NCBI RefSeq assembly: GCF_000226095.1
Contig: NC_016472.1
Span: 10,354,001 to 10,418,000, forward strand
Direction: 5' to 3'
Source of the DNA: Thermothelomyces thermophilus ATCC 42464
Taxonomy: Eukaryota; Ascomycota; Sordariomycetes; Sordariales; Chaetomiaceae
Length of the DNA: 64,000 nt
Both the position numbers and the translations under genes were made by a program. The notes under the pieces were generated by a model that worked only from the letters and a program-made list of their open reading frames with translations, was not told the origin of the DNA and did no database searches. Positions 1 through 58,900 of the stretch are shown here, one piece after another (the stretch's first letter is position 1; every line of letters starts with the position of its first letter).

Positions 1-1454
1 GGCTTCCACTCTTTTTTCGGGCTTTGACATTCTCGCTTATAGTGCCCTTTCTTTCCGTAGTTATAGTAGGTAACATTAGACTTGTCTTTAGTTGTCTTCT
101 TCCGGTCCTACTTCTATGCTATATCTATATCTATAGCTCTAGGGTACATCCTATACGAGGTACTGGCGTACGTTCGTTTTTTCTTATCGTTAGCCTTAAT
201 TATGGTTCTATTTGTTTGACCTTGTTTCTATTACTCTTGTATATAGAGCTGATTATTAATTCTAATGGCCTATATAATATATTTATCTAAAGTCTTAGGT
301 CGATCGTACTTATATAGCTTATCTTTAACCTTTTCCTTTAGGCCGTTATAGAATAATTATATTAATACCTTATCGTTAAGTTAGGACTTGAATATGTCCT
401 ATCTAAACTATATAGTATAAGAGGCTACTAACTTGGTCTGTCGGAGATTAGTAAGTCTTTCTTATATATAGATTTTCTCGTCTTTATCGCCAAAAACCTT
501 CCGAAGCTCTTCTTCGAAACGGTTGTAAGATCGGAAGACTGCCTATATAAACATGTCTTGGTTATCTTCGTCTTCCTTGGTAAGATAGTCGTTCTACATA
601 GGCTCGAACTATCTAAGTGCCTTGTCCTCTAGTCTTATAGCTACATAAAGGACTTTAGCTTTATTATCTAGAAACTTGTCGTTATTAAGCCAAAAGTAGG
701 ATCAGAGGTTTGTCAGGAATCCTATAAGATCCTCCTTAGTTCCTCTATATTTGCCAGGTAGTTCGATCTTAATATGGCTTGCTTTAATAACCTTAAGTAT
801 CTCGATTTTGGTATAGGCCTTGTTAATCAATTTCTATAAGTACTTTTCGCCGTTCTCGAGTTCCTTGATTCGAGCTTAAGCAGCCTTATCTCTCTAGTCC
901 AACTCCTAGATCTGCTGCTAGAGTTAACCAAGCTAGGCAAGCAGTTATTCGGCTATAACGTCAGTAGCTATATTGGTGTCGAGGTCGAAGTCACCTCCGT
1001 TCTAAACCATAATAGAACAAAGGGAGTAATAACAATGTATAACAAACCTAACTTAGACTTCTTCTAAAAGGGTCTAGATAGAGGTAGGTGAAGCAGACAA
1101 GGGCGTAGGTTATCTAAGGGATTCGGTAAAGCCAAAGGGTTTATAATAACACTAGAGTTATCTCTTACAGTAGTCGGTAATACTTAGTATAAGTACTGTA
1201 ATTGTGATTATTACCACTAGTAAACTCTAGAGTCTACTATAACGAGTGACTATCTACATGTATATATAATCCTAGTGATCACTTGTGATTACGGTGATTA
1301 TGAGTAATCGTATAGTGATGATCACCCTAATCACTGGTGAGCGTAGTGATCACTGTGCTTCCCTATGTTGTGATTGGTCCTTTCGTTCCTTCGGCTTGAT
1401 TGGCCTGTCTGTGCCGGTGGCTTAGGTAGCATCTGCATGCATATTTCCGTGACA
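1..1454 (-). mobile_element. Gypsy-type LTR retrotransposon C, 5' part only, RIP-degraded
   Basis: This is the 5' LTR (1038-1454) plus part of the gag region of a minus-strand gypsy element whose pol and 3' LTR lie beyond the left edge. The LTR and gag resemble element B (48427-55921) read in reverse complement. Reading frames are destroyed by C-to-T changes; the open stretch at 24-290 is only antisense to gag, and the same antisense stretch recurs in element B at 49594-49851. The element sits inside LINE H: LINE sequence resumes at 1455. The expected 5-bp duplication (CTAAT at 1455-1459) cannot be checked because the other copy is outside the window. Confidence 0.8.
1038..1454 (-). repeat. 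5' LTR of gypsy C (417 bp)
   Basis: In minus orientation it begins TGTCACGG and ends with a RIP-altered form of TTGTCACA, the termini shared by all gypsy LTRs here. It carries the B-subfamily U3 with repeated TGATCA-like palindromes. The primer-site region just inside it (about 1023-1036) is recognisable but lacks about 3 nt present in element B. Confidence 0.8.
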
Positions 1455-2498
1455 CTAATATAGGGCCCTTTAAGTAGTTACTAGGGCCTATAAGGCTACC
1501 CTTATCTAGTGCCTCTAAATAGAAGCCTAGGTGCCGCCCTTTGACCTCTATCTTAATAAGAGGCTAGCCAACTTCGAAGCCAAACTCGACTAGCCACTTC
1601 TATAGACTAGGGTAGGCCTAGGGGCCTCCTAGGTCCCTATAAGGGCCCTTATCTAATAGGCCTATAATAGGCTAAGCCAGAGGTTTTAGAAGAGGAGGGC
1701 TAGGGCGAGGGGCTAGGAGCCGAAGCCTATGGCCCTGGAAGTAGTAAGGTCGACGGTCCGGCAGTAGGTTTAGGAAGGCTATAGAGGGGGTTAACCCCCC
1801 CTATAGACCCTATAAAAAAGGCTATAGGCTACGGAACTAGCCGTGGTAACTAACTAGAGCAACCGTTAGAGGGCCGACCAAGCCGGCAAGAGGATATAGC
1901 GTATGTCAGACAAGGACCCCCTACGCCTGATTTTTATAGGGGAAGGCCTATAAAGGTACTAGGGCCTAACGAAGGCCTAGAGCTCCTTACTAGTACAGGC
2001 CTATATAGGGGCCATTAGCCTCTGTAACTTCCTATTTAGGATTCAAGTCCCGGGGGTCAGTACCCCCTACTATGCCTATAGCCAGGGGAGGGAAACTGTA
2101 GAGCACCTAGTTATATAGTGCCCAAACCTACCAAGAAGCCGGACGTAGGAATCCTAGGAAATACGGTCCCAAAGGGACCTAGACCTCGTTCTACGAGGTA
2201 TAAGGGCCTGTAACCATCGGTTAGCAAGGAGGGTTTTACAGTAGCTAATGGACCTAGGGAGGCTCCCGGAATACCGCCTCGTAAGGAGGCTAGACTAGGA
2301 GGGAAGGCCTCTATAGGGCTACTCTAGCCACTTCTCCTTTTCTTTATAGTGTATTAGTACTCCGGACTAGGCGTTAAAGGCAGGACAGAGGGTTTTATCC
2401 GGCCTATTAGGCACGGTTTTCTTTGTATATAACTAGAGAGGCTCTGGTATACTTATTAGCATAGCGGCGTAGGACTAATGATAATAATAATAATAATA
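1455..2498 (+). mobile_element. LINE-type retrotransposon H, 3' portion, RIP-degraded
   Basis: The sequence matches, in reverse complement, the 3' part of LINE G (right part 56000-56760, left part 48215-48426). It runs through the end of the reverse-transcriptase ORF and its 3' tail and ends in a (TAA)n-like run at about 2475-2498, a typical LINE tail. The 5' part is outside the window beyond gypsy C. The 3' end abuts the RNase H region of copia D just after its K/YHID-R/Y-YH-like motif, so the LINE appears to have inserted into that copia. Confidence 0.75.
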
Positions 2499-4855: not shown

Positions 4856-5276
4856 TGTCACGATTTGGCTGTATAAGGCAACCCGGCAAGGCACACAGGA
4901 CCAATCAGGAACCACAAGACCTAAGGACCAATCAGGAAGTGATCGCAGTAATCGCACTTCGATCAAGACGAGCACTTGGGTAACGATCGCAGGATCGCAG
5001 CAGCGATCGCACGATCAAGACTCAAGGAGGAAGGACAGGGAATTGTATATAGTCACTCGTTCCACCAGACTCTGGCGAACTCTGGGAGTTCACCAGTGAT
5101 AGCAACCCACAATCACAGTACTCATACCAGGCATTACTGATTACTGTGAGAGACAACTCTAGTGTTGTTGTGAACCCTTTGGCTTCACCGAATCCCTCAG
5201 ATGACCTGCCTATTGTCTTGCTCAATCTACCTTCGTCTGAACCCTTTCAGAAGAAGTCTGAGTTGGGTTCGTCACA
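4856..5276 (+). repeat. Solo gypsy LTR, unmutated, with perfect 5-bp duplication
   Basis: This 421-bp element begins TGTCACG and ends GTCACA, and is flanked by TTGCT at 4851-4855 and 5277-5281. Its last ~230 bp match the LTRs of gypsy A, B and C, while its U3 half is a different subfamily. It is strikingly GC-richer than the copia D DNA around it and shows no RIP signature. U3 carries two GGACCAATCAGGAA boxes and four GATCGCA repeats (4941, 4985, 4993, 5005). A TATA-like run is at 5046-5051 and the putative self-primer AGTGATAGCAAC is at 5095-5106. The short open frames across it are coincidental. Confidence 0.95.
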
Positions 5277-8160
5277 TTGCTACTGCTAGTAATGACTCTA
5301 TTAACTGCTCTTTACCTAGATAGTAGGAAGTCTTCTTATCGAAGTAAACGTTATAAATTATAATAACCTTATTAAGCTTAGGTATTTAAATATAGTAGAT
5401 ATTAAATATATAATATCCTATAAGATACCTTATTAGCCTATATAGTAGTACCTTAAAGTCCTTTATATACCGCTTAGCTTCTTTATCCTTATGGAAGATA
5501 TATACCTAGTATTTATATATAAAGATACTACTCTAGTCTAGGTATAAGTTGCTAGTTAATATAATTATTAAGCTAGGTTTATATCAGCGAAAATACCATT
5601 TAAACTAGTTATAGAGCACTTTGTTGGGAGTTTTAAATAAGTAAGTATAGCTTAGGCTTATCGTATATAAGTATATTACTACTTATATACTTTCCAACTA
5701 GAGCTTTATAGGTAGATTTATACCATTAACTATCTTAATTAAATATAAGATTAGTTCTTATCTTACTCGCTCTACTAGTCTATTAGGCTTATAGGTATAT
5801 AAAGGTAAGAGTTTAAGATTAATACTACTTTCTATAGCCTAAGTCTAGTAACGTATTAGTATACGCCTTACTAAACTAATCATCGTAATATCGTTATCTT
5901 ACTTGATCTTATAGATAGTAAGCCTATATTAGCGTCTTACCTAGCTCTCGAAATTCTAGATAACTCCTATAATCTAATCTAGCGACTTTATCGTTAGGAG
6001 GAAAGGGAAGAGCTTCTTACTATACTTATTAATGATTATAAGCAGCTATCGCGATCTATTAATCGCTTTAAGATAGTTAAACAGATCCTAGGCTACTTGC
6101 TAGAATAGATATATAGACTTCTACTTAGGTAGTATTTTCCTAGAGATAACCTTACTTATATAAGTACAAGTATAGCTCTTATACTTAATATATACTATTC
6201 CTTCAATATAGACGTTTCTAGCGTTATTACTAAGCGCTTTTAACGCTTCTAATCTAAGGTAGCTAGCTCTTAAGTACTAAAGATCCTTAGTATCCTCTCT
6301 TATAATGGGTAACGCTTATATCTAGAACCTTCTACTATATATAATAAATACGTTCTATAAGAATATATAAACGTTTATAATACCTGCTTTACTAATTTAA
6401 ATATAGTCTAAGAGGCTCGAGTAATAGGAAAGTAGCTTATATTCTAAGAAGGTAAGATTATACTTACGTTCTAGCTTATAAAGAATAACGTTATTTTCTG
6501 ATATTCCGAAATATAGTAAGCAATCTAAGCTATAATACTAAGCGTCTACCTTAAGTAATAGAGCTTTTAAGATAATATTAATATAGAATCCTTTAATAAT
6601 AGTAATATTCTTAAGCATTAGGTTCTTAATATATAGTCTATATAGTCCATTTAGAACATTCTTAATTACCTAAATGCCCCTCCTATTAATAGGAAAGATT
6701 ATTATACCCGTTTTAATAAACTTAGGATTATCTACCTTAATAAACGTCTTAGGCAAAAGGAACTTCTTATCGTTAACTAAGTAGGTCATACTATATAAAT
6801 CTAATAAAGTGCTTTCTAAAAGAGGATAATACCATAGAGCGACTATATTAAACGCCCTATAGTAAGTTAAGAGCTTACTAAATAATTAAAGGCTAATAAT
6901 TAATATATTAAGGGAACTAGGGTATCCTATCCTTAATTACCTAGAATAGGATAGCTCCCCTTACTTAATGATAAGTTAATTTTTCAATCTAGCCTACTTT
7001 AGCTTATCAAGCTCCTAGCAAATCCTCTTATATTCCTTATTAGAAAGGTATAAGCGTTACTTATTACCGTAGATAGCTTACTTAAGTATATAGTAGTCTA
7101 TTAGATCCTATAGATATCTTAGACACTTATAAGGATATCTTATATTATATTACTAAGTATATAAGTCTCTACCTCTCTCCTTATCGCTCTTTTAAGCTAT
7201 AGAAAGTATTAGTATATAAGTTATTAAGAAGATTCTATACTTCTAAGAGACTCTAAATTATATATTATTATTAATTAGAATCTTAGCTATTATAATAAAG
7301 GTATTAAGCTTTAGAAGTAGCTATTCTATATTATTAGTAAGCTCGATTTCTATCCTTTTATTTACTACCTAGGTTGATAGGATATATATAACAATAGTAT
7401 TAAGAAAGGTATAAAGTCTTTATATACCCTATACTTCTAGGATATTATATTAGATAGCTTGCTAGAAGGTAATATTAAAGTTACAAATCTAGTATTATGG
7501 ATTAACTCCTGAATGCTTAGCTATATTAAGACTAGCTATATATTATATAGTAACTATTATATGAAGTATTATAATAGATAGTATAAGTATAGAGTAAAGT
7601 GCTTAGATAATCCCTTTAATAAGGTTAATATCCTTCTTCCTATATACTTTTATAGCTTTATGAAGTTTAGAATCTATAATATATACTAGCTAGTATTATA
7701 GCTATCCTATCTACTTACTAATATCTATGGTATATATAATATCTTTATAAAAGGAGTCTTATAATTATATAAATTTAGCTATAATAGCTATATTAGAAGG
7801 TATTAAATCTATAGATATTAAAGGTAATAATCCTTCTAGGAGTTACTCCTAGGAAGCTAGGATAAGGTTATCTCTAGCTTACTTATAAATTAAGTACTAT
7901 AGAACTTTTAGATCTAGCTTATAATTACTATTAAAGTTAATAAATCCCTATATATTAGCGAATCTAGCCTATAATTATAGTTCGATATATTATAAGTTCC
8001 AGGAACTAGGCCTTATAAGGTATATAAAAGTCTCGACTAGGATCTTAGATATAATAGACACGTTGTCAAAAATATATTAAAGCAAGGTAAGAGAGTTCGT
8101 AATAGAAGAAGCTACTACTAATATTAAAGATATATCGGTAGAGGAGCAGTTAAGGCGCTA

Positions 8161-24073: not shown

Positions 24074-24242
24074 TCTTGCAGGTGGATGCGCGGATAGAAC
24101 TGACGATCTTCGTATCTCTGCTACGTAGTTGGCGATGGTTCTGGAGGAAGAAGGACGGAGGCGTCCAGAGCCAACCTGCAGGAAGATGTAGGTGGCTGCA
24201 ACCTCGGTAGGGCTGGAGCCCTGGTAGGCCCAGTCTACCATA
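24074..24242 (-). repeat. 3' LTR of copia E (169 bp)
   Basis: Nearly identical to 37577-37745. The few differences seen are C-to-T or G-to-A type. GC-rich and spared from heavy RIP. Confidence 0.92.
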
Positions 24243-25636: not shown

Positions 25637-26063
25637 TGTCACGGAAATATATATGCAGGACGTCGCCTAAGTCGCCTCCCCCGACAGGCCAATAGGATAG
25701 CAGGCACGAACGGACCAATCAGGAAAAGATCACGCTTAGCAAAGTGATCTATACACTATAAGATCACTACTGTAGCTATAATCTAGATAGCAAAGAATCA
25801 CTAGGTAAAGAGTAATCCTCAGATTATATATACATATAGATAGTCACTCGTTATAATAGACTCTAGGAGTTTACTAGTGATAGCAACCTGTCCTATAATC
25901 ATAGTACTCATACTAAGCATTGCTAATTACTATAAGAGATAACTCTAGTATTATTATAAACCCTTTAGCTTCACCAAATCCCTTAGACGACCTGCCTACT
26001 TGTCCTGCTTAATCTACCTTCGTCTAAACCCTTTTAGAAGAAGTCTAAGTTAGGTTCGTTATA
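25637..26063 (+). repeat. 5' LTR of gypsy A (427 bp)
   Basis: It begins TGTCACGG and ends in TTATA, the RIP form of TCACA. TATATATA is at 25825-25832 and AGTGATAGCAAC at 25876-25887. Confidence 0.92.
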
Positions 26064-26064
26064 C

Positions 26065-26076
26065 GTTGCTATCACT
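26065..26076 (+). other. Putative self-priming primer binding site of gypsy A
   Basis: GTTGCTATCACT starts 2 nt after the LTR and is the exact reverse complement of AGTGATAGCAAC inside both LTRs (25876-25887 and 32898-32909). No tRNA 3'-end match (such as TGGTATCAGAGC) is seen here. This is the Tf1-like arrangement. Confidence 0.6.
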
Positions 26077-29000: not shown

Positions 29001-31408
29001 TAGCTGTTCTCTCTATTAACGAATACAGAGCACTACAATTGGAGTAGTGGGTTAAGATAGGAAAAATCGCCAACATCGCCATAGACAGAACCAAGTTCGT
29101 ATACTATTAGAAAACCGAGAGACGAGACAAGACTAGGGAAGTACTAAAGGAATACGAAGGACACCTAGCATTCGAACTAAAACATCTAGAAGGACTACCA
29201 GAATATAGCCTATAGGATTACGAGATCAAGCTTAAGGAAGGAGCACGACTAAAGTTCTTTAAGATCTATTATACAAGCCAGACTTAGAACGAAGAACTTA
29301 AGCGATATTTAGAGGAGAACCTTCGAAGAGGATATATCTACCTGTCGATATTGCTAGCAGGCTACCTAATCCTGTTTGTACCTAAGAAAGACAGAAAGCT
29401 ATAGTTATATGTTGACTATTGGCAACTTAAACTTGCTATTAGCCTATAACTACATATGGATCAAAGAAGGCAACAAGTAGAAAACGGCCTTTAGGACACC
29501 CTATAGCCACTACAAGTACCTTATTATGCCATTCGGACTTATAAACACGCTAGCAACGTTCTAAGCCCTAATTAATTAAGCTATTTGACCCTTTCTTGAC
29601 AAATTTACAGTATATTATCTCGACGATATACTTATCTTCTCTAAGACGATAGACGAACATTAGAAGCACGTAAAAGTAATGCTAGACGCGCTATATACGT
29701 ATAAACTATTAGTTAATAAGGAAAAGAACGAATTCCACGTTAGGAAAACGGTGTTTTTAAGATACAAGATATCCCTAGGACAAATCCGGATAGAACCTTC
29801 AAAGGTTAAAGCTATTAAGAATTAGCTATAACTAACATCAGTCACGGAAATACAAAGCTTTATCGGATTTATAAACCTCTACCGAATATTTATTAAGAAC
29901 TTTAGAGTAATCGTACGACCTTTACACGAACTTACAAAGAAGAACATTAAATTCCAATAGGAAGAACAGCACGAGCAAGCATTTATATAGATCTATAACG
30001 CCATTACTAAAGATCTAGTACTAGTACTACCAGACCCTAAGAAGCCATTCGAGGTAGAAACGGACGCTTTAGACTACGCCATCGAAGCACAATTAGGATA
30101 ACAAGACAAATAAGAAAAGCTACATCCTATAGCCTTCTTTTTAAAGAAGCTCGATAGATTATGTCTTAATTATCTGATCTATAATAAGGAATTACTTACG
30201 ATTGTCGAAGCTTTTAAGGAATGGCGACTATACCTTAGTAGTACAATTAAACTAGTATAAGTATATATAGATTATAAGAATTTACGATACTTTACGATAA
30301 CAAAAGAACTTAACAGACGACAAATACAATAGGCGGAATTCCTTATAGAATTTAACTTTAAGATCTACTATAAGAAGGGCAAAGAGAACGTACGAGCGGA
30401 TATCTTAAGCCGACGAACGGATTATATAGAAGGACGAACGGAAATAATACTACCGTTATTCAAGGAACGAATAGACGGAACACTATATCACAAAACGCAA
30501 ATACCTGTGGAAGATAATCTACTTGACTCGTTCCTAGAATATTATATAATCTTTCGAAAAGAAAGAATCAACGAGATATAATATTAAGTAGCACCCGGAC
30601 TAGTGGTACCTAATGGAGTAGAAGAAAGAGATAGGAAACTCCAGTACCAAGGCAAAGCATATATCTACGACGGGGATCAATAGCTACAAATGATTTGAGA
30701 ACTCTATAAGTCGAAACTCGGAAGATATAAAGGAGTTACAAAGACTGTCGTATAAGTTAGGAAACACTACAACTTTCTATAGTTAACGGTACGAGTTAAG
30801 GAAGTCGTACGAAACTACAACATTTGTAATCGAAGCAAAACGGTACGACACAAGCCGTATAGGCTACTTTAGCCACTACTAATAGCTAACGAACTATAGA
30901 GTTTAGTTACAATAGACTTATTACGAAGCTACTAGAATCTAAGGATATAGCTACAAGAGTAACCTATAATAATATTCTTATTATAATAGATTACCTAACT
31001 AAATAGGTATACTTCTTTCCCTATAAGGAGTCCTAGATAGCTAAATAGTTGGTAAACGTGATCTATTAGCAAGTTACATTAGTATATGCTTAGCCACAAG
31101 AATAGATCACCAATAGAGATACCAAGTTCGTATCGAAGTTTTAGTAAGCGTTAATATAACGATTAGGTATCAATAGCAAGCTATTAATAGCATACCACCC
31201 ACAGACTAACGGACAAACAGAGCGACTAAACTAAGTTATTAAGCAGTACCTTTACTCTTACATTAACTACTAACAAGATGACTAGGTCATGCTATTACCA
31301 ATAGTATAACTCGCTTATAACATAACGCCAATAGAAACAACTAAAGTTATACCGTTCTTCGCAAACTACAGATATAAAGCAGACCTTAGGCAAAGACTAG
31401 AGGTCATA

Positions 31409-31687
31409 GTGCCAAGAGCAGCAGTCAAAGTAGAACAAATATACGTACTATATAAAAAGCTCAAAAAGGAACTCGAGTTTGTTAAGACTAGAATAAAGAA
31501 CTACTATAACAAATACAGGCTCGAGGGACCTCGCCTAGAGAGGGGAGACAAAGTCTACCTAATCGTACGAAACTTACGAACCAAACGACTAAGTATAAAG
31601 CTAGACTTTAAGAAGATCAGATTCTTTGTTATTAAAGAACAAATTTTAATATCTAACTACCGACTATCGTTACCGTCATCTATATAA
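31409..31687 (+). pseudogene. Surviving open segment of the gypsy A integrase C-terminus
   Basis: This is the longest readable stretch of gypsy A pol. It carries the ERGDKVYLIVRNLRTKR-type GPY/F-region signature that follows the integrase core and precedes the chromodomain. It is not an independent gene. Confidence 0.7.
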
Positions 31688-32658: not shown

Positions 32659-33085
32659 TATCACGGAAATATATATATAGGACGTCGCCTAAGTCGTCTC
32701 CCCCGACAAGCCAATAGGACAGTAGGCACGAACGGACTAATTAGGAAAGGATCACGCTTGGCAAAGTGATCTATATACTATAGGATCACTACTATAGCCG
32801 TAATCTAGACGGCAAAGGATCACTAGGTAAAGAGTGATCCTCGGATTATATATACATGTAGATAGTCACTCGTTATGGTAGACTCTAGGAGTTCACCAGT
32901 GATAGCAACCTGTCCTATAATTATGATACTTATACCAAGCATTGCTGATTACTGTGAGAGACAACTCTAGTGTTGTTGTAAACCCTTTGGCTTCACCGAA
33001 TCCCTTAGACGACCTGCCCGCTTGTCCCGCTCAATCTACCTTCGTCTGAACCCTTTTAGAAGAAGTCTAAGTTGGGTTTGTCACA
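32659..33085 (+). repeat. 3' LTR of gypsy A (427 bp)
   Basis: Same length as the 5' LTR. It is preceded by a purine-rich tract (AAAGGAGGGGCATCG), the likely polypurine tract. Its first dinucleotide is TA instead of TG, a RIP-type change. Confidence 0.92.
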
Positions 33086-37576: not shown

Positions 37577-37745
37577 TCTTGCAGGTGGATGCGCGGATAG
37601 AACTGACGATCTTCGTATCTCTGCTACGTAGTTGGCGATGGTTCTGGAGGAAGAAGGACGGAGGCGTCCAGAGCCAACCTGCAGGAAGATGTAGGTGGCT
37701 GTAACCTCGGTAGGGCTGGAGCCCTGGTGGGCCCAGTCCACCACA
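37577..37745 (-). repeat. 5' LTR of copia E (169 bp)
   Basis: Minus strand starts TGTGGTGGAC. GATTG at 37746-37750 is the right copy of the duplication. Confidence 0.92.
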
Positions 37746-48201: not shown

Positions 48202-48426
48202 TAGTATATTATTATTATTAGTCCTACACTACTATACTAATAAGTATACTAAAGCCTCTCCAATTATATATAAAGGAAACCGTACCTAATAGGCCAGATA
48301 AAAACCTCTACCCTACCTCTAATACCTAATCTAGAATACTAATACACTATAAAGAAAAGGAAAAGTAGCTAGAATAGCCCTAAAGAGGCCTTCCCTCCCG
48401 GTCTAGCCTCCTTATAAGGCGGTATT

Positions 48427-48846
48427 TGTCACGGAAATATACATGCAGATGCCACCTAAGCCACCGGCATAGACAGACCAATCAAGCCGAAGGAACGAAA
48501 GGACCAATCACAACATAGGGAAGCACAGTGATTACTACGCTCACCAGTAATCAGGGTGATCATTACCATACGATCACTTATAATCACCGTAATCACGAGT
48601 GATCACTGAGATTATATATACATGTAGATAGTTACTCGTTATAGTGGACTCTAGGAGTTCACTAGTAGTAATAATCATAATCATAGTACTCATACCAAGT
48701 ATTACTAATTACTATAAGAGATAACTCTAAGTATTGTTATAAACCCTTTAACTTTACTAAATCCCTTAGACGACCTACCTGCCTGTCCTGCTCAATCTAC
48801 CTTCGTCTAAACCCTTTTAGAAGAAGTCTAAGTTAGGTTCGTCATA
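48427..48846 (+). repeat. 5' LTR of gypsy B (420 bp)
   Basis: TATATATA is at 48613-48620. The putative primer source at 48664-48674 reads AGTAGTAATAA, one RIP-type change from the 3' LTR copy. Confidence 0.93.
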
Positions 48847-48848
48847 CG

Positions 48849-48859
48849 TTATTACCACT
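48849..48859 (+). other. Putative self-priming primer binding site of gypsy B
   Basis: TTATTACCACT is the exact reverse complement of AGTGGTAATAA in the 3' LTR at 55739-55749. Both halves differ from those of gypsy A but remain complementary. Confidence 0.6.
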
Positions 48860-51800: not shown

Positions 51801-54800
51801 GACGAATGTAGAGCACTATAACTAGAGTAGTAGGTTAAGATAGGAGAAATCGCTAGTATTGCTATAGATAGAACCAAGTTTATATATTATTAGAAAACTA
51901 AGAGACGAGACAAGACTAGGGAAGTACTAAAGGAATATAAAGGACACCTAGCATTTGAACCGAAATATCTAGAAGGATTACTAGAACACGGCCTATAGGA
52001 TCACGAGATCAAGCTTAAGGAAGGAGCATAACTAAAGTTCTTTAAGATTTACTATACGAGCTAGACATAGAACGAAGAACTTAAATGGTATTTAGAGGAG
52101 AACCTTCGAAGAGGATATATCTGCCTATCGACATCGCTAGCAGGCTACCTAATCCTATTTGTGCCTAAGAAGGACGGAAAGCTATAGTTATATGTTAACT
52201 ATTAGTAACTTAACAAATAGATCGTAAAAAACCAATACCCGTTACTACTAATCTTATAGCTCTAAGATTAGTTAGCAGGAGCCTAATATTTTATATATCT
52301 TAACTTGCTATTGGCCTATAACTATATATAGATTAAAGAAGGCAACAAGTAGAAAACGGCCTTTAGGACACCCTATAGCTACTATAAGTACCTTGTTATG
52401 CTATTCGGACTTACGAACGCGCTAGCAACGTTCTAAGCTCTAATTAATCAAGCTATCTAACCCTTTCTCGACAAATTTACGGTATATTATCTCGATAATA
52501 TACTTATCTTCTCTAAGACAATAGACGAACACCAGAAGTATATAAGAGTAATACTAGATATATTATATATATATAAGCTATTAGTTAACAAGGAAAAGAG
52601 CGAATTCCACGTTAGGAAAATGGTGTTTTTAAGATACAAAATATCCCTAGGACAAATCCGGATAGAACCTTTAAAGGTTAAAGCCATCAAGGATTAGCTA
52701 CAACCAACGTTAATTACGGAAGTACGAAGTTTCATCGGGTTTACGAACTTCTACCGGATGTTCATTAGGAACTTTAGAGCGATCGTACAACCTTTACACG
52801 AACTTACCAAGAAGAACACTAAATTCCAATGGGAAGAGTGATACGAGCAAGCATTTACGTAGATCTGCGACGCCATTACTAAAGATCTAGTACTGGTGCT
52901 GCTAAACCCTAAGAAGCCATTTAAGGTGGAAACGGACGCTTTAGACTATACTATCGGAGGACAATTAGGATAATAAGACAAACAAAGGAAGTTACATCCT
53001 ATAGCCTTCTTTTCAAAGAAGCTTAATAGACTACGTCTCAATTATCTAATCTATAATAAGGAACTACTTACAATTGTCAAAGCTTTTAAGGAATGGTGAC
53101 TATACCTTAGTAGCACGATCGAACCAGTATAAGTATATATAGATCACAAGAATTTACGATACTTTACAACGACGAAGGAGCTTAACAGACGACAAATACG
53201 ATAGGCAGAATTCCTTATAAAATTCAATTTTGAGATCTGCTATAAGAAGGGCAAAGAGAATGTATAAGCGGACGCCTTAAGCCGACAAACGGATTATACG
53301 GAAGGACAAACGGAAATAATGCTACCGTTATTCAAAGAACGAATAGACGGAACGCTACATTACGAAATATAGACACCCGTAGAAGACGATCTACTCAACT
53401 TATTCCTAGAATATTATACAATCCTTCGAGAAGAAAGGATTAACGAGATATAGTATCAAGTAGCACCTAGACTAGTGGTACCTGACGGAGTAGAAGAAAA
53501 AGATAGGAAACTCTGGTACCGAGGCAAAGCGTATATCTATAACAAAGATCAATAGCTACAAATGATTCAAGAGCTCTACAAATCGAAACTTAGAAGATAT
53601 AAAGGAGTCACAAAAACTGTTATACAAGTCAAGAAACACTACGACTTTCCATAGTTAATGGTATGAGTTAAAGAAGTCATATGAAACTACGACATCTATA
53701 ACCGAAGCAAAATAGCACGACACAAGCTATATAGGTTACTTTAGCCACTGCTAACACCTGACAAACTATAGAGCTTGGTCACGATAGACTTCATTACGAA
53801 GCTGCTAGAATCTAAAGACACAGCCATAGGAGTGATCTACAACAGCATCCTCACTATAGTAGATCGCCTAACTAAATAGGTATACTTCTTCCCCTACAAG
53901 GAATCCTAGATAGCTAAACAGCTAGCAGATGTAATCTATTGGCAAGTTGCATCAGTGCATGCTTAGCCACAAGAATGGATCACCGACAGAGACACCAAAT
54001 TTGTATTGAAGTTCTAGCAAGCGTTAATACGACGATTAGGCGTTAATAGCAAGCTATTAACAGTATATCACCTATAGACCGACAGATAAATAGAGTGACT
54101 AAACCAAGTCATCGAACAGTATCTCCGTTCTTACGTCAACTATTAGTAAAACGACTAGGTCATGTTATTACCAATAGTATAACTCGCTTACAATATAACG
54201 CTAACAGAAACGACTAAGGTCATACCATTCTTCGCGAACTATAGATATAAAGTAGACCTTAGATAAGGACTAGAGATTATAGTGCCAAGAGCAGTAGTCA
54301 AAGTAGAACAAATGTATATACTGTATGAAAAGCTTAAAAAGGAACTCGAGTTTGTCAAAACGAGGATAAAGAACTACTATGACAAACATAGGCTTGAGGG
54401 ACCTTGCCTAGAAAGGGGAGACAAAGTCTACCTAATCGTATGAAACTTGCAAACCAAACGACTAAGCACGAAGCTAGACTTTAAGAAGGTCGGACCCTTT
54501 GTTATCAAAGAATGAATTTCGACATCTAACTATTAACTATCGTTACTGTTATCTATACGACTATAGATAGATGTTTTTTATATTTCACTTCTTAAACTAG
54601 TACCGAAAAATGCTAAGGTTGCTATATACATCGAAGCAGAAGACGAAGAGGAAGAATAGGACATCGAAGAAATTCTAGATTTATATATTATTAACAGGGA
54701 ACTATAGTACCTAGTCAAATGGCTTGATTTTAGATTAGAAGATAGTTTATAGGAACTAATTAAGAATCTAAATTGCCCTAAGAAACTAGAGCAGTTCTAC

Positions 54801-55501: not shown

Positions 55502-55921
55502 TGTCACGGAAATATACATATAGATGCCACCTAAGCCACCGGCATAGACAGACCAATCAAGCTAAAGGAACAAAAGGACCAATCATAACATAGGGAAGCA
55601 CAGTGATCACTATGCTCACCAGTGATCAGGGTGATCATCACCATACGATCATTTACAATCACCATGATCACGAGTAATCACTGAGATTATATATACATGT
55701 AGATAGTCACTCGTTATGGTAGACTCTAGGAGTTTACCAGTGGTAATAATCATAATTACAGTACTTATACTAAGCATTGCTAATTACTATAAGAGATAAC
55801 TCTAAGTGTTGTTATAAACCCTTTGGCTTTACCGAATCCCTTAGACGACCTGCCTGCCTGTCCTGCTCAATCTACCTTTGTCTGAACCCTTTTAGAAGAA
55901 GTCTGAGTTGGGTTTGTCATA
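55502..55921 (+). repeat. 3' LTR of gypsy B (420 bp)
   Basis: It is preceded by the purine tract AGAGGGAGGGCATCA. U3 holds four TGATCA palindromes between 55604 and 55670. TATATATA is near 55688-55695. Confidence 0.93.
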
Positions 55922-58900
55922 GTATTCTAGGAGCCTCCCTAGGTCTATTAGCTACTATAGAACCTTCCTTGCTAACCGATGGTTATAGGCCCCTATACCC
56001 TATAAAACAAGGTCTAGGTCCCTTTACGACCGTATTTCCTAGGATTCCTATATTCGGCTTCTTGGTAGGTTCGGGCACTAAACAACTAGGTGCTCTATAG
56101 TTTCCCTCCCTTAGCTATAGGCATAGTAAGAGGTACTAACCCCTGGGACTTGAACCTTAAAAAGGAAGTTATGGAGGCTAATAGCCCCTATATAGGCCTG
56201 TACTAGCAGGGAGCTCTAGGCCTTCGTTAGGCCCTAGTGCCTTTGTAGGCCTTCCCCTATGAAAACTAAGTATAGGGGGTCCTTGTCAGACACACGCTAT
56301 ATCTTCCTACCGGTTTGGTCGGCCCTTTAACGGTTACTCTAGCTAGCTACTACGGCTAGTTCTATAGCCTATGGCCTTCTTTGTAGGATCTGTAGGGGGG
56401 GTTGACCCCCTTTATAGCTCTCCTAAACCTATTGCCAGACTATCGACCTTGCTACCTTTAGGGCTATAGGCTTTATCTCCTAGCCCCTTGCCCTAGTCCT
56501 TCTCTTCTGGAACCTCTAGTTAAGCCTATTATAGACCTGTTGGATAGGAGCCCTTATAGGGACCTAGGGGGCCCCTAGGCCTACCCTAGTCTATAGGAGT
56601 AGTTAGTCAAGTTTAGCTTTGAAGTCGGCTAGCCTCTTATTAAGATAGAGGTCGAGGGGCGGTACCTAGGCTTCCGTTTCGAGACACTAGATAGGGGTAG
56701 CCTCATAGGCTCTAGTAACTACTTAAAGGGCCCTATATTAGGCCTTTAATAGTTCCCCAGCAGGGCCTTCCGGCTTACCCCCTAGTTTAGTAGGCTTGTA
56801 GAAGTTCGAGGCCCTATATGCCAGGGCGCTATAGATATACTTAGTATAGACCTTATAGGCCTATAGGAGGCTAGGGCCCTAGATTTTTATAGCGAGCCTA
56901 GTTAGGGTAAACTCCTAGGTTTTTAGCTTCTTAGTTACCGTTATATAGTAGGGGCCCTATTATAGCCTCTAGTCTAGCCAGACCCCTAGGAATCTAGCTA
57001 ACTTTAATAAGGCTATAGTAGTAGTACCCCCTCTAGGCTATAGGAGCTCTAGTAGTCATAACTACTATTTCTAGCTCCTATTAAAGTAGATAAGTTTACA
57101 CTTTTCTAGGGTAAAAGTTATACCTTAGGTCTTTACCTATTATAAGTAGGCTTTCTAGGCCCTCTATAGCTAACCATTATAGGCCTCCTTGGCCCTCCTA
57201 AAGGCTAGAAGGTTAGTATCATCGGTAAAGCCTATTAAACTGACTATAAGGTAAGCCTAGCAAACGGCTTAGTAAAGAGAGGCTATATAGAGGATAAATA
57301 GTATAGGGGAGAGGGGTGACCCCTAGGGGACCCTAGCCCTTACTATTATATCTCCTGTTTCTTAGCTATCGAAGTAAAGGATAGCTACCCTGTCCTATAG
57401 CTACTCCCTAACCTAGACTACTAACTACTTTGGGAAGCCCTAGCTCCATAGAGTGGCTAGTAGCTAGGTATAGTTAATAGTGTCGAAAGCCCCTAAGATA
57501 TCGAGCTATAGGAGAGAGGTAGCTACCTTATATCTCTAAGCCTCCTAGACCTAAGCCATAATAAGCCAAATAGCTAGTTCCATAGACCTATATTCCTGGT
57601 TACCTATCTATTCGGCTAGGAAGAGCCTATAGGCCTCTATAATAGCCGTTACCTTCTAGGCGACTATAGCCTCTAATACCTTACCTACTATTAGTAGAAG
57701 CACTATAGGCCTATAGCCGCCTAGGGTAAAGTAGGCTTATAGGGGTTTGCTAGGCTTATCAAGGACGACTATTTTGGCCCTTTTAAACCGGGCCGGAAAA
57801 TAGCTAAGCCGTAGGCTCTCTAAGGCTAGTTTTGCTAGTATCTAGTAGAGCGGTTACCTATAGGCCTTTAATAGACCTATAGGAAGGAGGTCCTCCCCTA
57901 GGGCTTTCTATAGGGCCGCCCTAGCTAGTACTACCTTGACTTTGCCTATTGTAACCTCTTAGATTATTTCAAACTTCGGCTCCTAATGGTTATTTAGATC
58001 TAGGTCGTCAATATCCGACAGGTCCGCTTCCGGGTTTGGAAAGAACTTATCGGTTAGTGCTCTAGCCTTCTATTAGTAGGTTCTAAGCCCTCCTTCGAAG
58101 GCTAGGAGCTTTAGAGGATTAACCGGTAGGTAGCTTTATAGCCTTACCTATGCTCTAGCCTCTATAATAGGTCTGGCCGGTTAGTTACCTCCTGTAATAT
58201 AGCTCTCTAGCTTTTGGTCTTTATAGCCGTAATAGTCTTAGCCTAGTCTTATGGGGCTTGCCGAAGTGCTTCCTATATATAGGGGTTTAGGGTACCCCTA
58301 TAGGCCCTCTCTACCTCCTTGGCCCTCTTCTAGGCCTCTCAAACCTCCTTTATCTACCATTAAGCTCGTTTACCACCTATATTAGCCTTCTTTACTAGGG
58401 CCGAGACCATAACTATCTCCCCAAGGGCCTCTATAAGCCTGTCAAAGGCCTATAGAAGCTCCTCTAGGCCCTAGAAGATAGGCCCGGCCAGGGCTGATAC
58501 CTACCTACTAAGCCGGAGTAAGAGATAGGCTACCTCGGCCTACGCGACCTCCTCGTCTAAGCTCTTCTAGTCCTACCCTTTTCTAGCCGGTATAGGCCTA
58601 TTAGTCCCCTAAAGGGAGATGTTTAGGGCCTATAGGTAGTAGTTAGATTTCCTACGTTCTATAATGTCCTTGTAGGTCGCTTTTAGCCTAGCCGAGGCCT
58701 AGAATAGGTCTATTATAGAAGGCTAGCCGCGTTAGTCCCCCTAGAGGGCCTTAGTAACCTAGCTATAGGGTATATATAGGTTAAGGTCCTACTAGTCTAT
58801 AAGGCTAAGGAGGTCCCTAGCCCCTAGGCTAAGCCTGTCGAATAGGTCCTAGACTAGGTAGTAGAGGTTAAAGTTACCTATAAGAACTAGAGGGTAGGTT

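What the first reader, a model, noticed from the sequence alone, without database searches (positions are those of the whole stretch)
25876..26076. Gypsy A/B family looks self-primed, with covariation between subfamilies
Seen: in gypsy A, AGTGATAGCAAC inside the LTR (25876-25887, 32898-32909) is the exact complement of the site just inside the 5' LTR (26065-26076). In gypsy B both partners have changed, AGTGGTAATAA (55739-55749) with TTATTACCACT (48849-48859), and complementarity is kept. The source lies 49-51 bp after the TATA box in A, B and the solo LTR (5095-5106), a plausible transcript 5' end. Known: S. pombe Tf1 primes reverse transcription from the first 11 nt of its own mRNA. Inference: this family does the same.
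Basis: partly seen in the sequence, partly recalled or inferred. Interest (0 to 1): 0.75.

Follow-up and report, generated by a model that had tools for sequence, protein, structure and literature searches.

The report
Self-primed fungal Ty3/gypsy retrotransposon family
A large family of jumping genes in a heat-loving fungus appears to start copying itself with the first 11 letters of its own RNA instead of a borrowed tRNA, a trick already known from fission yeast, and the two matching sites have changed together between its two branches.

Summary
In gypsy A the LTR 12-mer is the exact complement of the site after the 5' LTR; 1 of 20,000 LTR shuffles does as well. In this genome (Thermothelomyces thermophilus ATCC 42464), 666 pattern matches fall into two primer types, A (AGTGATAGCAA) and C (AGTGGTAACAA): 333 A/A and 331 C/C against 2 crossed, one visibly rearranged. 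Two pairs (nt 5, 8) changed on both sides in opposite G-C/A-U directions, so RIP alone does not explain them. The third difference (nt 9, 'gypsy B') looks like RIP hitting both partners of a C-type pair: no association in 40 copies, mild concordance genome-wide (207 of 331). Complementarity covers 11 nt, 2 nt after the LTR. The leader is predicted to form the primer:PBS duplex in 74 of 84 copies. Reverse transcriptase and a chromodomain lie at near-constant distances in many copies. Best reading: a chromovirus self-primed like Tf1, a mechanism already proposed across Tf1/sushi elements. New member of a known kind. RNA 5' end and primer cleavage remain unmeasured, and 45 of 65 listed tRNA genes unread.

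The parts
25637..26063 (+). 5' LTR of gypsy A (type A primer)
   Evidence: TGTCACGG...GTTATA; flanking 5-bp duplication CTTAA/CTTGA
25876..25886 (+). Putative self-primer AGTGATAGCAA of gypsy A (predicted RNA nt 1-11; nt 12 at 25887 is C)
   Evidence: Exact complement of the PBS; TATATA starts 49 bp upstream
26064..26065 (+). CG dinucleotide between LTR end and PBS, attributed here to integrase end trimming (inference)
   Evidence: Two bases, CG or its C-to-T/G-to-A variants, in the LTR-end tallies of 38 A-group and 40 C-group copies
26066..26076 (+). PBS TTGCTATCACT of gypsy A
32659..33085 (+). 3' LTR of gypsy A; source copy at 32898-32909
48427..48846 (+). 5' LTR of gypsy B (C-type primer with RIP-like changes); source AGTAGTAATAA at 48664-48674
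   Evidence: Target duplication GTATT on both sides
48849..48859 (+). PBS TTATTACCACT of gypsy B
55502..55921 (+). 3' LTR of gypsy B; source AGTGGTAATAA at 55739-55749
4856..5276 (+). Solo LTR with A-type source at 5095-5106, TTGCT target duplication on both sides
1038..1454 (-). 5' LTR of a third copy on the minus strand, C type: source 1208-1218 AGTGGTAATAA, PBS 1025-1035 TTGTTATTACT (LTR end taken as 2 nt before the PBS)
52461..52694 (+). Reverse transcriptase piece of gypsy B, read between stops
   Evidence: RVT_1 E 5.2e-7; PDB chain 4ol8_A, E 5.2e-8, and Ty3 Gag-Pol 7q5b_A, E 2.9e-7
30114..30257 (+). RNase H piece of gypsy A
   Evidence: RT_RNaseH_2 E 1.2e-8
31310..31684 (+). Piece of gypsy A that matches the Tf2-1-like SH3 domain
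   Evidence: SH3_Tf2-1 E 3.5e-6, 27.5 bits, below its 30-bit cut-off

Best explanation
A chromodomain Ty3/gypsy retrotransposon family of several hundred copies that starts minus-strand DNA synthesis with a primer cut from the 5' end of its own RNA. Proposed steps: transcription starts at or near the A of AGTG, about 50 bp after the TATA box (inferred); RNA nt 1-11 fold back on the PBS, which lies 2 nt after the LTR (complementarity shown in sequence, fold predicted); RNase H cuts after about nt 11 and the freed 3' end is extended into U5 (inferred from Tf1); integrase later removes the 2 nt so that the LTR ends in CA (inferred). Because the daughter's PBS can be copied from the primer, source and PBS stay matched when the source mutates (inferred), which fits the two matched primer types seen.
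For: Co-segregation of source and PBS type among pattern matches: 333 A/A, 331 C/C, 1 A/C, 1 C/A. With anchors placed outside both sites, 87 distinct stretches in 91 records: nt 5 is G-C 43, A-T 40, G-T 2, unpaired 2; nt 8 is A-T 47, G-C 39, unpaired 1; nt 1, 3, 6, 7 and 11 pair in 87 of 87 and nt 10 in 86 plus one G-T. On 84 aligned copies 94.2% of cells pair against 20.2-72.3% when the partner is slid by 1-3 columns (six of the 11 pairs were fixed by the extraction pattern). In the 38 A-group and 40 C-group copies nt 13 and the six bases before nt 1 never pair. LTR subtypes of type A differ right after nt 11 (listing). RNAalifold predicts nt 5-11 with the PBS unprompted; the duplex (6 or more of 11 pairs) is in the single-copy minimum-energy fold of 74 of 84 copies, median MFE z -2.69. 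The PBS lacks TGG, and the best of 20 tRNA genes matches 8 of 11. RT lies 3301-3305 bp after the PBS in 25 of 84 listed C-type matches on contig C1, a chromodomain 5798 or 5804 bp after it in 16 (a 17th at 5696), and five of these 25 carry pol frames open for 1264 or 1287 aa.
Against: No transcript 5' end and no cDNA end was measured. A and C may stem from only one or two substitution events per pair, so the 664 matches are not independent, and the patterns count only copies that fit them. Only 20 of 65 listed tRNA genes were compared, and that list is itself a lower bound; none of the 20 is called Met, and one tRNA-Thr shares 8 consecutive letters with the C and B primers. Many copies now carry RIP-like mismatches: 37 of 87 unpaired at nt 4, 13 at nt 9, 7 at nt 2. 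Shuffle control (a) does not separate the number of two-sided pairs (3 observed, mean 2.4, reached in 222 of 500) or of pair types (8 observed, mean 9.0), and the covariation score of the -3 slide (0.229) is near the observed 0.264. The A group also pairs partly at nt 14-18 (0.42-0.87). The U5-LTR helix is in only 35 of 84 folds. The C-source/A-PBS match is unexplained.
Confidence: 0.9

Rival explanations
1. tRNA or half-tRNA priming: the PBS pairs with a host tRNA and the LTR match is a by-product.
For: tRNA priming is the usual way in Ty3/gypsy elements (recalled); 45 of 65 listed tRNA genes were not read and none of the 20 read is called Met. A tRNA-Thr shares 8 consecutive letters with the C and B primers, 8 of 11 in all.
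Against: No TGG at the PBS start; best of 20 tRNA genes 8 of 11 for each primer type; two PBS types would need two tRNAs, each mirrored by the LTR; 664 to 2 co-segregation.
Confidence: 0.04
2. The A/B covariation is made by RIP, which mutates CpA and its TpG partner and so turns C-G pairs into T-A pairs without selection or copying.
For: Explains nt 9: source C/T and PBS G/A are unlinked in 40 C-group copies (6, 10, 10, 14; Fisher p 1.0). nt 4 behaves the same way.
Against: nt 5 and nt 8 change in opposite G-C/A-U directions between A and C, and the nt 5 partners are not in CpA/TpG context; these two pairs co-segregate almost completely. Against RIP even at nt 9: genome-wide concordance of 207 of 331 exceeds what an assumed symmetric-margin table predicts (odds ratio 2.4, p 0.0002), which a mix of intact and RIPped copies would give but which does not prove RIP; and the link of nt 9 state to TpA load is not significant (p 0.09 to 0.38).
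Confidence: 0.04
3. The 11-nt complementarity serves another leader function (packaging, dimerisation, translation control) and reverse transcription is primed otherwise.
For: A leader fold is predicted.
Against: The site sits where a PBS is expected, 2 nt after the LTR end, and no other primer candidate turned up among the 20 tRNA genes read.
Confidence: 0.02

Closest known systems
Tf1/Tf2 of Schizosaccharomyces pombe
   Same: PBS complementary to 11 nt that encode the presumed RNA 5' end; chromodomain pol; leader fold that brings primer and PBS together (PMC7175516 and PMC10085805, passages read).
   Different: The duplex on the 3' side of the PBS is a local hairpin here rather than pairing with the LTR (5 copies compared); two primer types coexist in one genome. 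The Tf1 sequence itself was not compared.
Tj1 of S. japonicus, Tosmo1-3 and Tcry1 (Tf1/sushi group)
   Same: Self-priming inferred from sequence in the same way (PMC4600332 and PMC10085805, passages read).
   Different: Those are fission yeasts; this is a high-copy family with RIP-like changes in a filamentous ascomycete.
Tcn1-clade chromoviruses of fungi and non-seed plants
   Same: Self-priming proposed for Cryptococcus Tcn1 (PMC7175516) and predicted for most plant Tcn1 members (PMC6317226), passages read.
   Different: Clade membership was not tested here by phylogeny. One plant member, SM-Tcn1, showed evidence of neither tRNA priming nor self-priming (PMC2864245, passages read).

Membership tests
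Tf1/sushi self-primed chromoviruses | PBS complementary to an LTR sequence, at least 10 nt, starting 0-5 bp after the LTR (criterion of PMC6317226) | tested here: met
   11 nt, 2 bp after the LTR
Tf1/sushi self-primed chromoviruses | Primer is the very 5' end of the RNA | not testable with these tools
   Only the TATA distance of about 50 bp
Tf1/sushi self-primed chromoviruses | RNase H cleavage between nt 11 and 12 | not testable with these tools
   Consistent with the 11-nt block
Tf1/sushi self-primed chromoviruses | Three-duplex 'pretzel' leader structure | tested here: inconclusive
   Single-copy minimum-energy folds of 84: primer duplex in 74, U5-LTR helix in 35, 3' local hairpin in 80; the 3' flank pairs poorly with the LTR in 5 copies compared
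Tf1/sushi self-primed chromoviruses | Chromodomain after integrase | tested here: met
   Chromo hits 5696-5804 bp after the PBS in 17 of 84 listed C-type matches on C1; within the search range for 2 of 70 A-type, one of which shares its hit with a neighbouring C-type copy
Tf1/sushi self-primed chromoviruses | RT/integrase phylogeny inside the Tf1/sushi cluster | not tested
   No reference pol sequences at hand; only RVT_1, Ty3 and a sub-cut-off SH3_Tf2-1 match
tRNA-primed Ty3/gypsy | PBS begins with TGG and matches a tRNA 3' end | tested here: not met
   No TGG; best of 20 tRNA genes 8 of 11; 45 of 65 listed tRNA genes not read

The most novel reading that the evidence does not exclude
One family has split into two primer-compatibility groups (A and C) that replicate side by side with little cross-priming: each cross-pairing has one A-C mismatch and one G-U wobble, and only one or two of 666 pattern matches are crossed. 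Primer and PBS would then act as a lineage-specific lock and key.
Probability: 0.15. Interest if true: 0.5.

Novelty: new member of a known kind. Interest (0 to 1): 0.3.

Why it matters
It adds a high-copy filamentous-fungus family with a built-in genetic test of self-priming: two primer types with matched PBS changes, tallied by pattern over the whole genome. It also suggests that RIP can fake part of a covariation signal in fungal repeats. Some copies keep open pol frames, so the mechanism could be checked by mapping RNA and cDNA ends in an existing strain.

Tried and rejected
Gypsy B as a third primer type: rejected as most likely RIP on C-type copies, though not proven. Crossed match at C3:4217654: rejected as a true 5' LTR, because the letters after the source are inverted LTR-end sequence. 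Search for relatives in viral contigs with two short pol pieces found none. PDB search with the integrase-end piece gave nothing relevant (best E 0.53). Of 12 protein pieces scanned against Pfam, 7 gave no family at E up to 1. Pairing of the 3' PBS flank with the LTR, as in the Tf1 pretzel, was tested on 5 copies and is weak (-5.4 to -6.8 against -12.2 to -15.5 kcal/mol for the local hairpin). The extraction pattern fixes nt 1, 3, 6, 7, 10 and 11 and their partners, so their full pairing there is by construction; one search repeated the count with anchors outside both sites, and 1 of 87 stretches (in L022) fell outside the earlier pattern. In one search one of 29 chromodomain hits on C1 (the second hit in the 1358-aa frame near 4.218 Mb) was left out of the pasted list. 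Papers: two searches for this organism's elements listed none that describes this family by title and abstract start (4 papers: 2 papers; none of the six opened).

Full report
What is there. The window lies in a 38.7-Mb, 7-contig genome. A gag piece matches proteins named Thermothelomyces thermophilus ATCC 42464, two of them on a contig of 10,931,058 bases, the length of contig C1. The two elements are genuine LTR retrotransposons. LTR A is 25637-26063 and 32659-33085, flanked by CTTAA/CTTGA; LTR B is 48427-48846 and 55502-55921, flanked by GTATT on both sides. A duplicated stretch of the window shows B's empty site, its two arms overlapping by 5 nt. A solo LTR with TTGCT on both sides is at 4856-5276, and the start of a third copy lies on the minus strand (LTR 1038-1454).

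The complementarity. Dinucleotide shuffles of LTR A give a complement of 12 nt or more to the first 20 internal bases in 1 of 20,000 cases, and for B one of 11 nt or more in 10 of 20,000. In 84 distinct source-to-PBS stretches from the 90 element loci and the window, 38 are A/A and 40 C/C by strict marks and 6 are blurred by changes at those marks. That extraction fixed six of the 11 pairs, so I repeated it with anchors outside both sites: 87 distinct stretches in 91 records, 1 of them outside the earlier pattern; nt 1, 3, 6, 7 and 11 pair in 87 of 87, nt 10 in 86 plus one G-T, nt 5 in 85 and nt 8 in 86; the loss lies at nt 2 (7 unpaired), nt 4 (37) and nt 9 (13), in each case A opposite C. 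The six bases before nt 1, and nt 13, never pair in the 78 classified copies; the A group also pairs partly at nt 14-18. Two bases, CG apart from C-to-T and G-to-A variants, separate the LTR end from the 11-nt PBS, and nt 12 of the source varies (C in most A-group, T in C-group copies) while the CG does not follow it. I read this as an 11-nt primer plus 2 nt later trimmed by integrase; that is inference.

Covariation across the genome. Patterns that tolerate RIP-like changes counted the copies that fit them: A source with A PBS 333, C with C 331, A with C 1, C with A 1. The A/C hit contains inverted LTR-end sequence and is not a normal 5' LTR. The C/A hit looks real in its 80 visible letters and stays unexplained. 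Without such constraint, nt 5 is G-C in 43, A-T in 40, G-T in 2 and unpaired in 2 of 87; nt 8 is A-T in 47, G-C in 39 and unpaired in 1 (the aligned 84 give the same picture). Between A and C one pair goes from A-U to G-C and the other from G-C to A-U, so one mutational bias cannot make both. Relatedness limits the weight: this may be as few as two compensated pairs, inherited many times. In the tool's shuffles, cells paired, cells changed on both sides and the covariation score beat all 500, but the number of two-sided pairs (3 against a mean of 2.4) and of pair types (8 against 9.0) did not, and sliding the partner by -3 gives a covariation score of 0.229 against 0.264.

The correction. B's PBS and 3'-LTR source differ from A at three places, but nt 9 is a C-G pair in CpA:TpG context, where RIP changes each side on its own. 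In 40 C-group copies source and PBS states at nt 9 are unlinked (6, 10, 10, 14; p 1.0), as at nt 4. Genome-wide, 141 + 66 of 331 are concordant (total). With symmetric margins assumed this is a mild excess (odds ratio 2.4, p 0.0002), as expected from a mix of intact and RIPped copies, and far from the A/C split. The direct link of nt 9 state to TpA load is in the expected direction but not significant for the source (p 0.09 and 0.13) and absent for the PBS (p 0.38 twice). So RIP is the better reading, not a proof. B's own 5' LTR has a mismatch at nt 4. The loci sample is biased: 60 were the best matches to A or B, 30 the first listed places on C1.

How it likely works. The TATA box starts 49 bp upstream of the source in five window LTRs and a TATA-like motif lies 49-53 bp upstream in 71 of the 78 classified copies, with none found in 6. 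The folded leader pairs primer and PBS (6 or more of 11 pairs) in 74 of 84 single-copy minimum-energy folds, with a hairpin just 3' of the PBS in 80 and a helix between the U5 end and an upstream LTR stretch in 35; median MFE z is -2.69, and 65 of 84 lie below -2 (40 shuffles each). RNAalifold predicts the same three helices, the first as nt 5-11, besides others. Tf1's first 11 bases pair with its PBS and are cut between 11 and 12 (PMC7175516, passages read); its 'pretzel' has two further duplexes between PBS-adjacent and LTR sequence (PMC10085805, passages read). Here the upstream one fits that scheme in part of the copies, while the downstream one is local, so the match is partial. Transcript start, cleavage and priming were not measured.

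tRNA alternative. The PBS does not begin with TGG. Of 65 listed tRNA genes 20 were read; ARAGORN calls all 20 as tRNAs, none as Met; the best match to the A, C or B primer is 8 of 11, for C and B with 8 consecutive letters in a tRNA-Thr. The other 45 were not read.

What family. Pieces read between stops match RVT_1, RNase H, gag and, below its cut-off, the Tf2-1-like SH3 domain; the RT piece matches Ty3 in the PDB. On contig C1, of the places listed, 25 of 84 C-type matches have RT 3301-3305 bp downstream and 17 of 84 a chromodomain (16 at 5798 or 5804 bp, one at 5696); for A-type, 3 of 70 and 2 of 70, of which one each is owed to a neighbouring C-type copy (the lists hold only the best 149 and 150 hits). 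Several pol frames are open for 1264 or 1287 aa without stops, so intact-looking copies exist. It works like Tf1 and carries the chromodomain of that group, but phylogenetic membership in Tf1/sushi was not tested. Self-priming in this group is already in print (PMC4600332, PMC6317226, PMC7175516, PMC10085805, passages read), so this is a new member of a known kind.

Noticed in passing
window 1-1454, minus strand: A third copy (C type) runs off the window start; the genome lists RT at C1:10351241-10351723, 3302 bp from its PBS by the coordinates.
   Followed up: partly
window 1455-2489 versus 48207-48426 and 55922-56741: Inverted duplicated stretch that gives the empty site of gypsy B with a 5-nt overlap.
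   Followed up: partly
window 24074-24240 and 37577-37743: 167-bp direct repeat, 98% identical, on either side of gypsy A.
   Followed up: no
G000:C1 2723550-2725403: Seven of the listed tRNA hits lie within 2 kb; the five read look A+T-rich and one is called SeC(tca), which suggests a mitochondrial set, perhaps a mitochondrial insertion or assembly join in the chromosome (interpretation from recall).
   Followed up: no
G000:C6 546283-546489: Single C-source/A-PBS match, possibly a template-switch recombinant between the two types.
   Followed up: no
L079 and similar A-type copies: A-type LTR subtypes carry different, sometimes shorter, sequence right after the 11-nt source (listing).
   Followed up: partly
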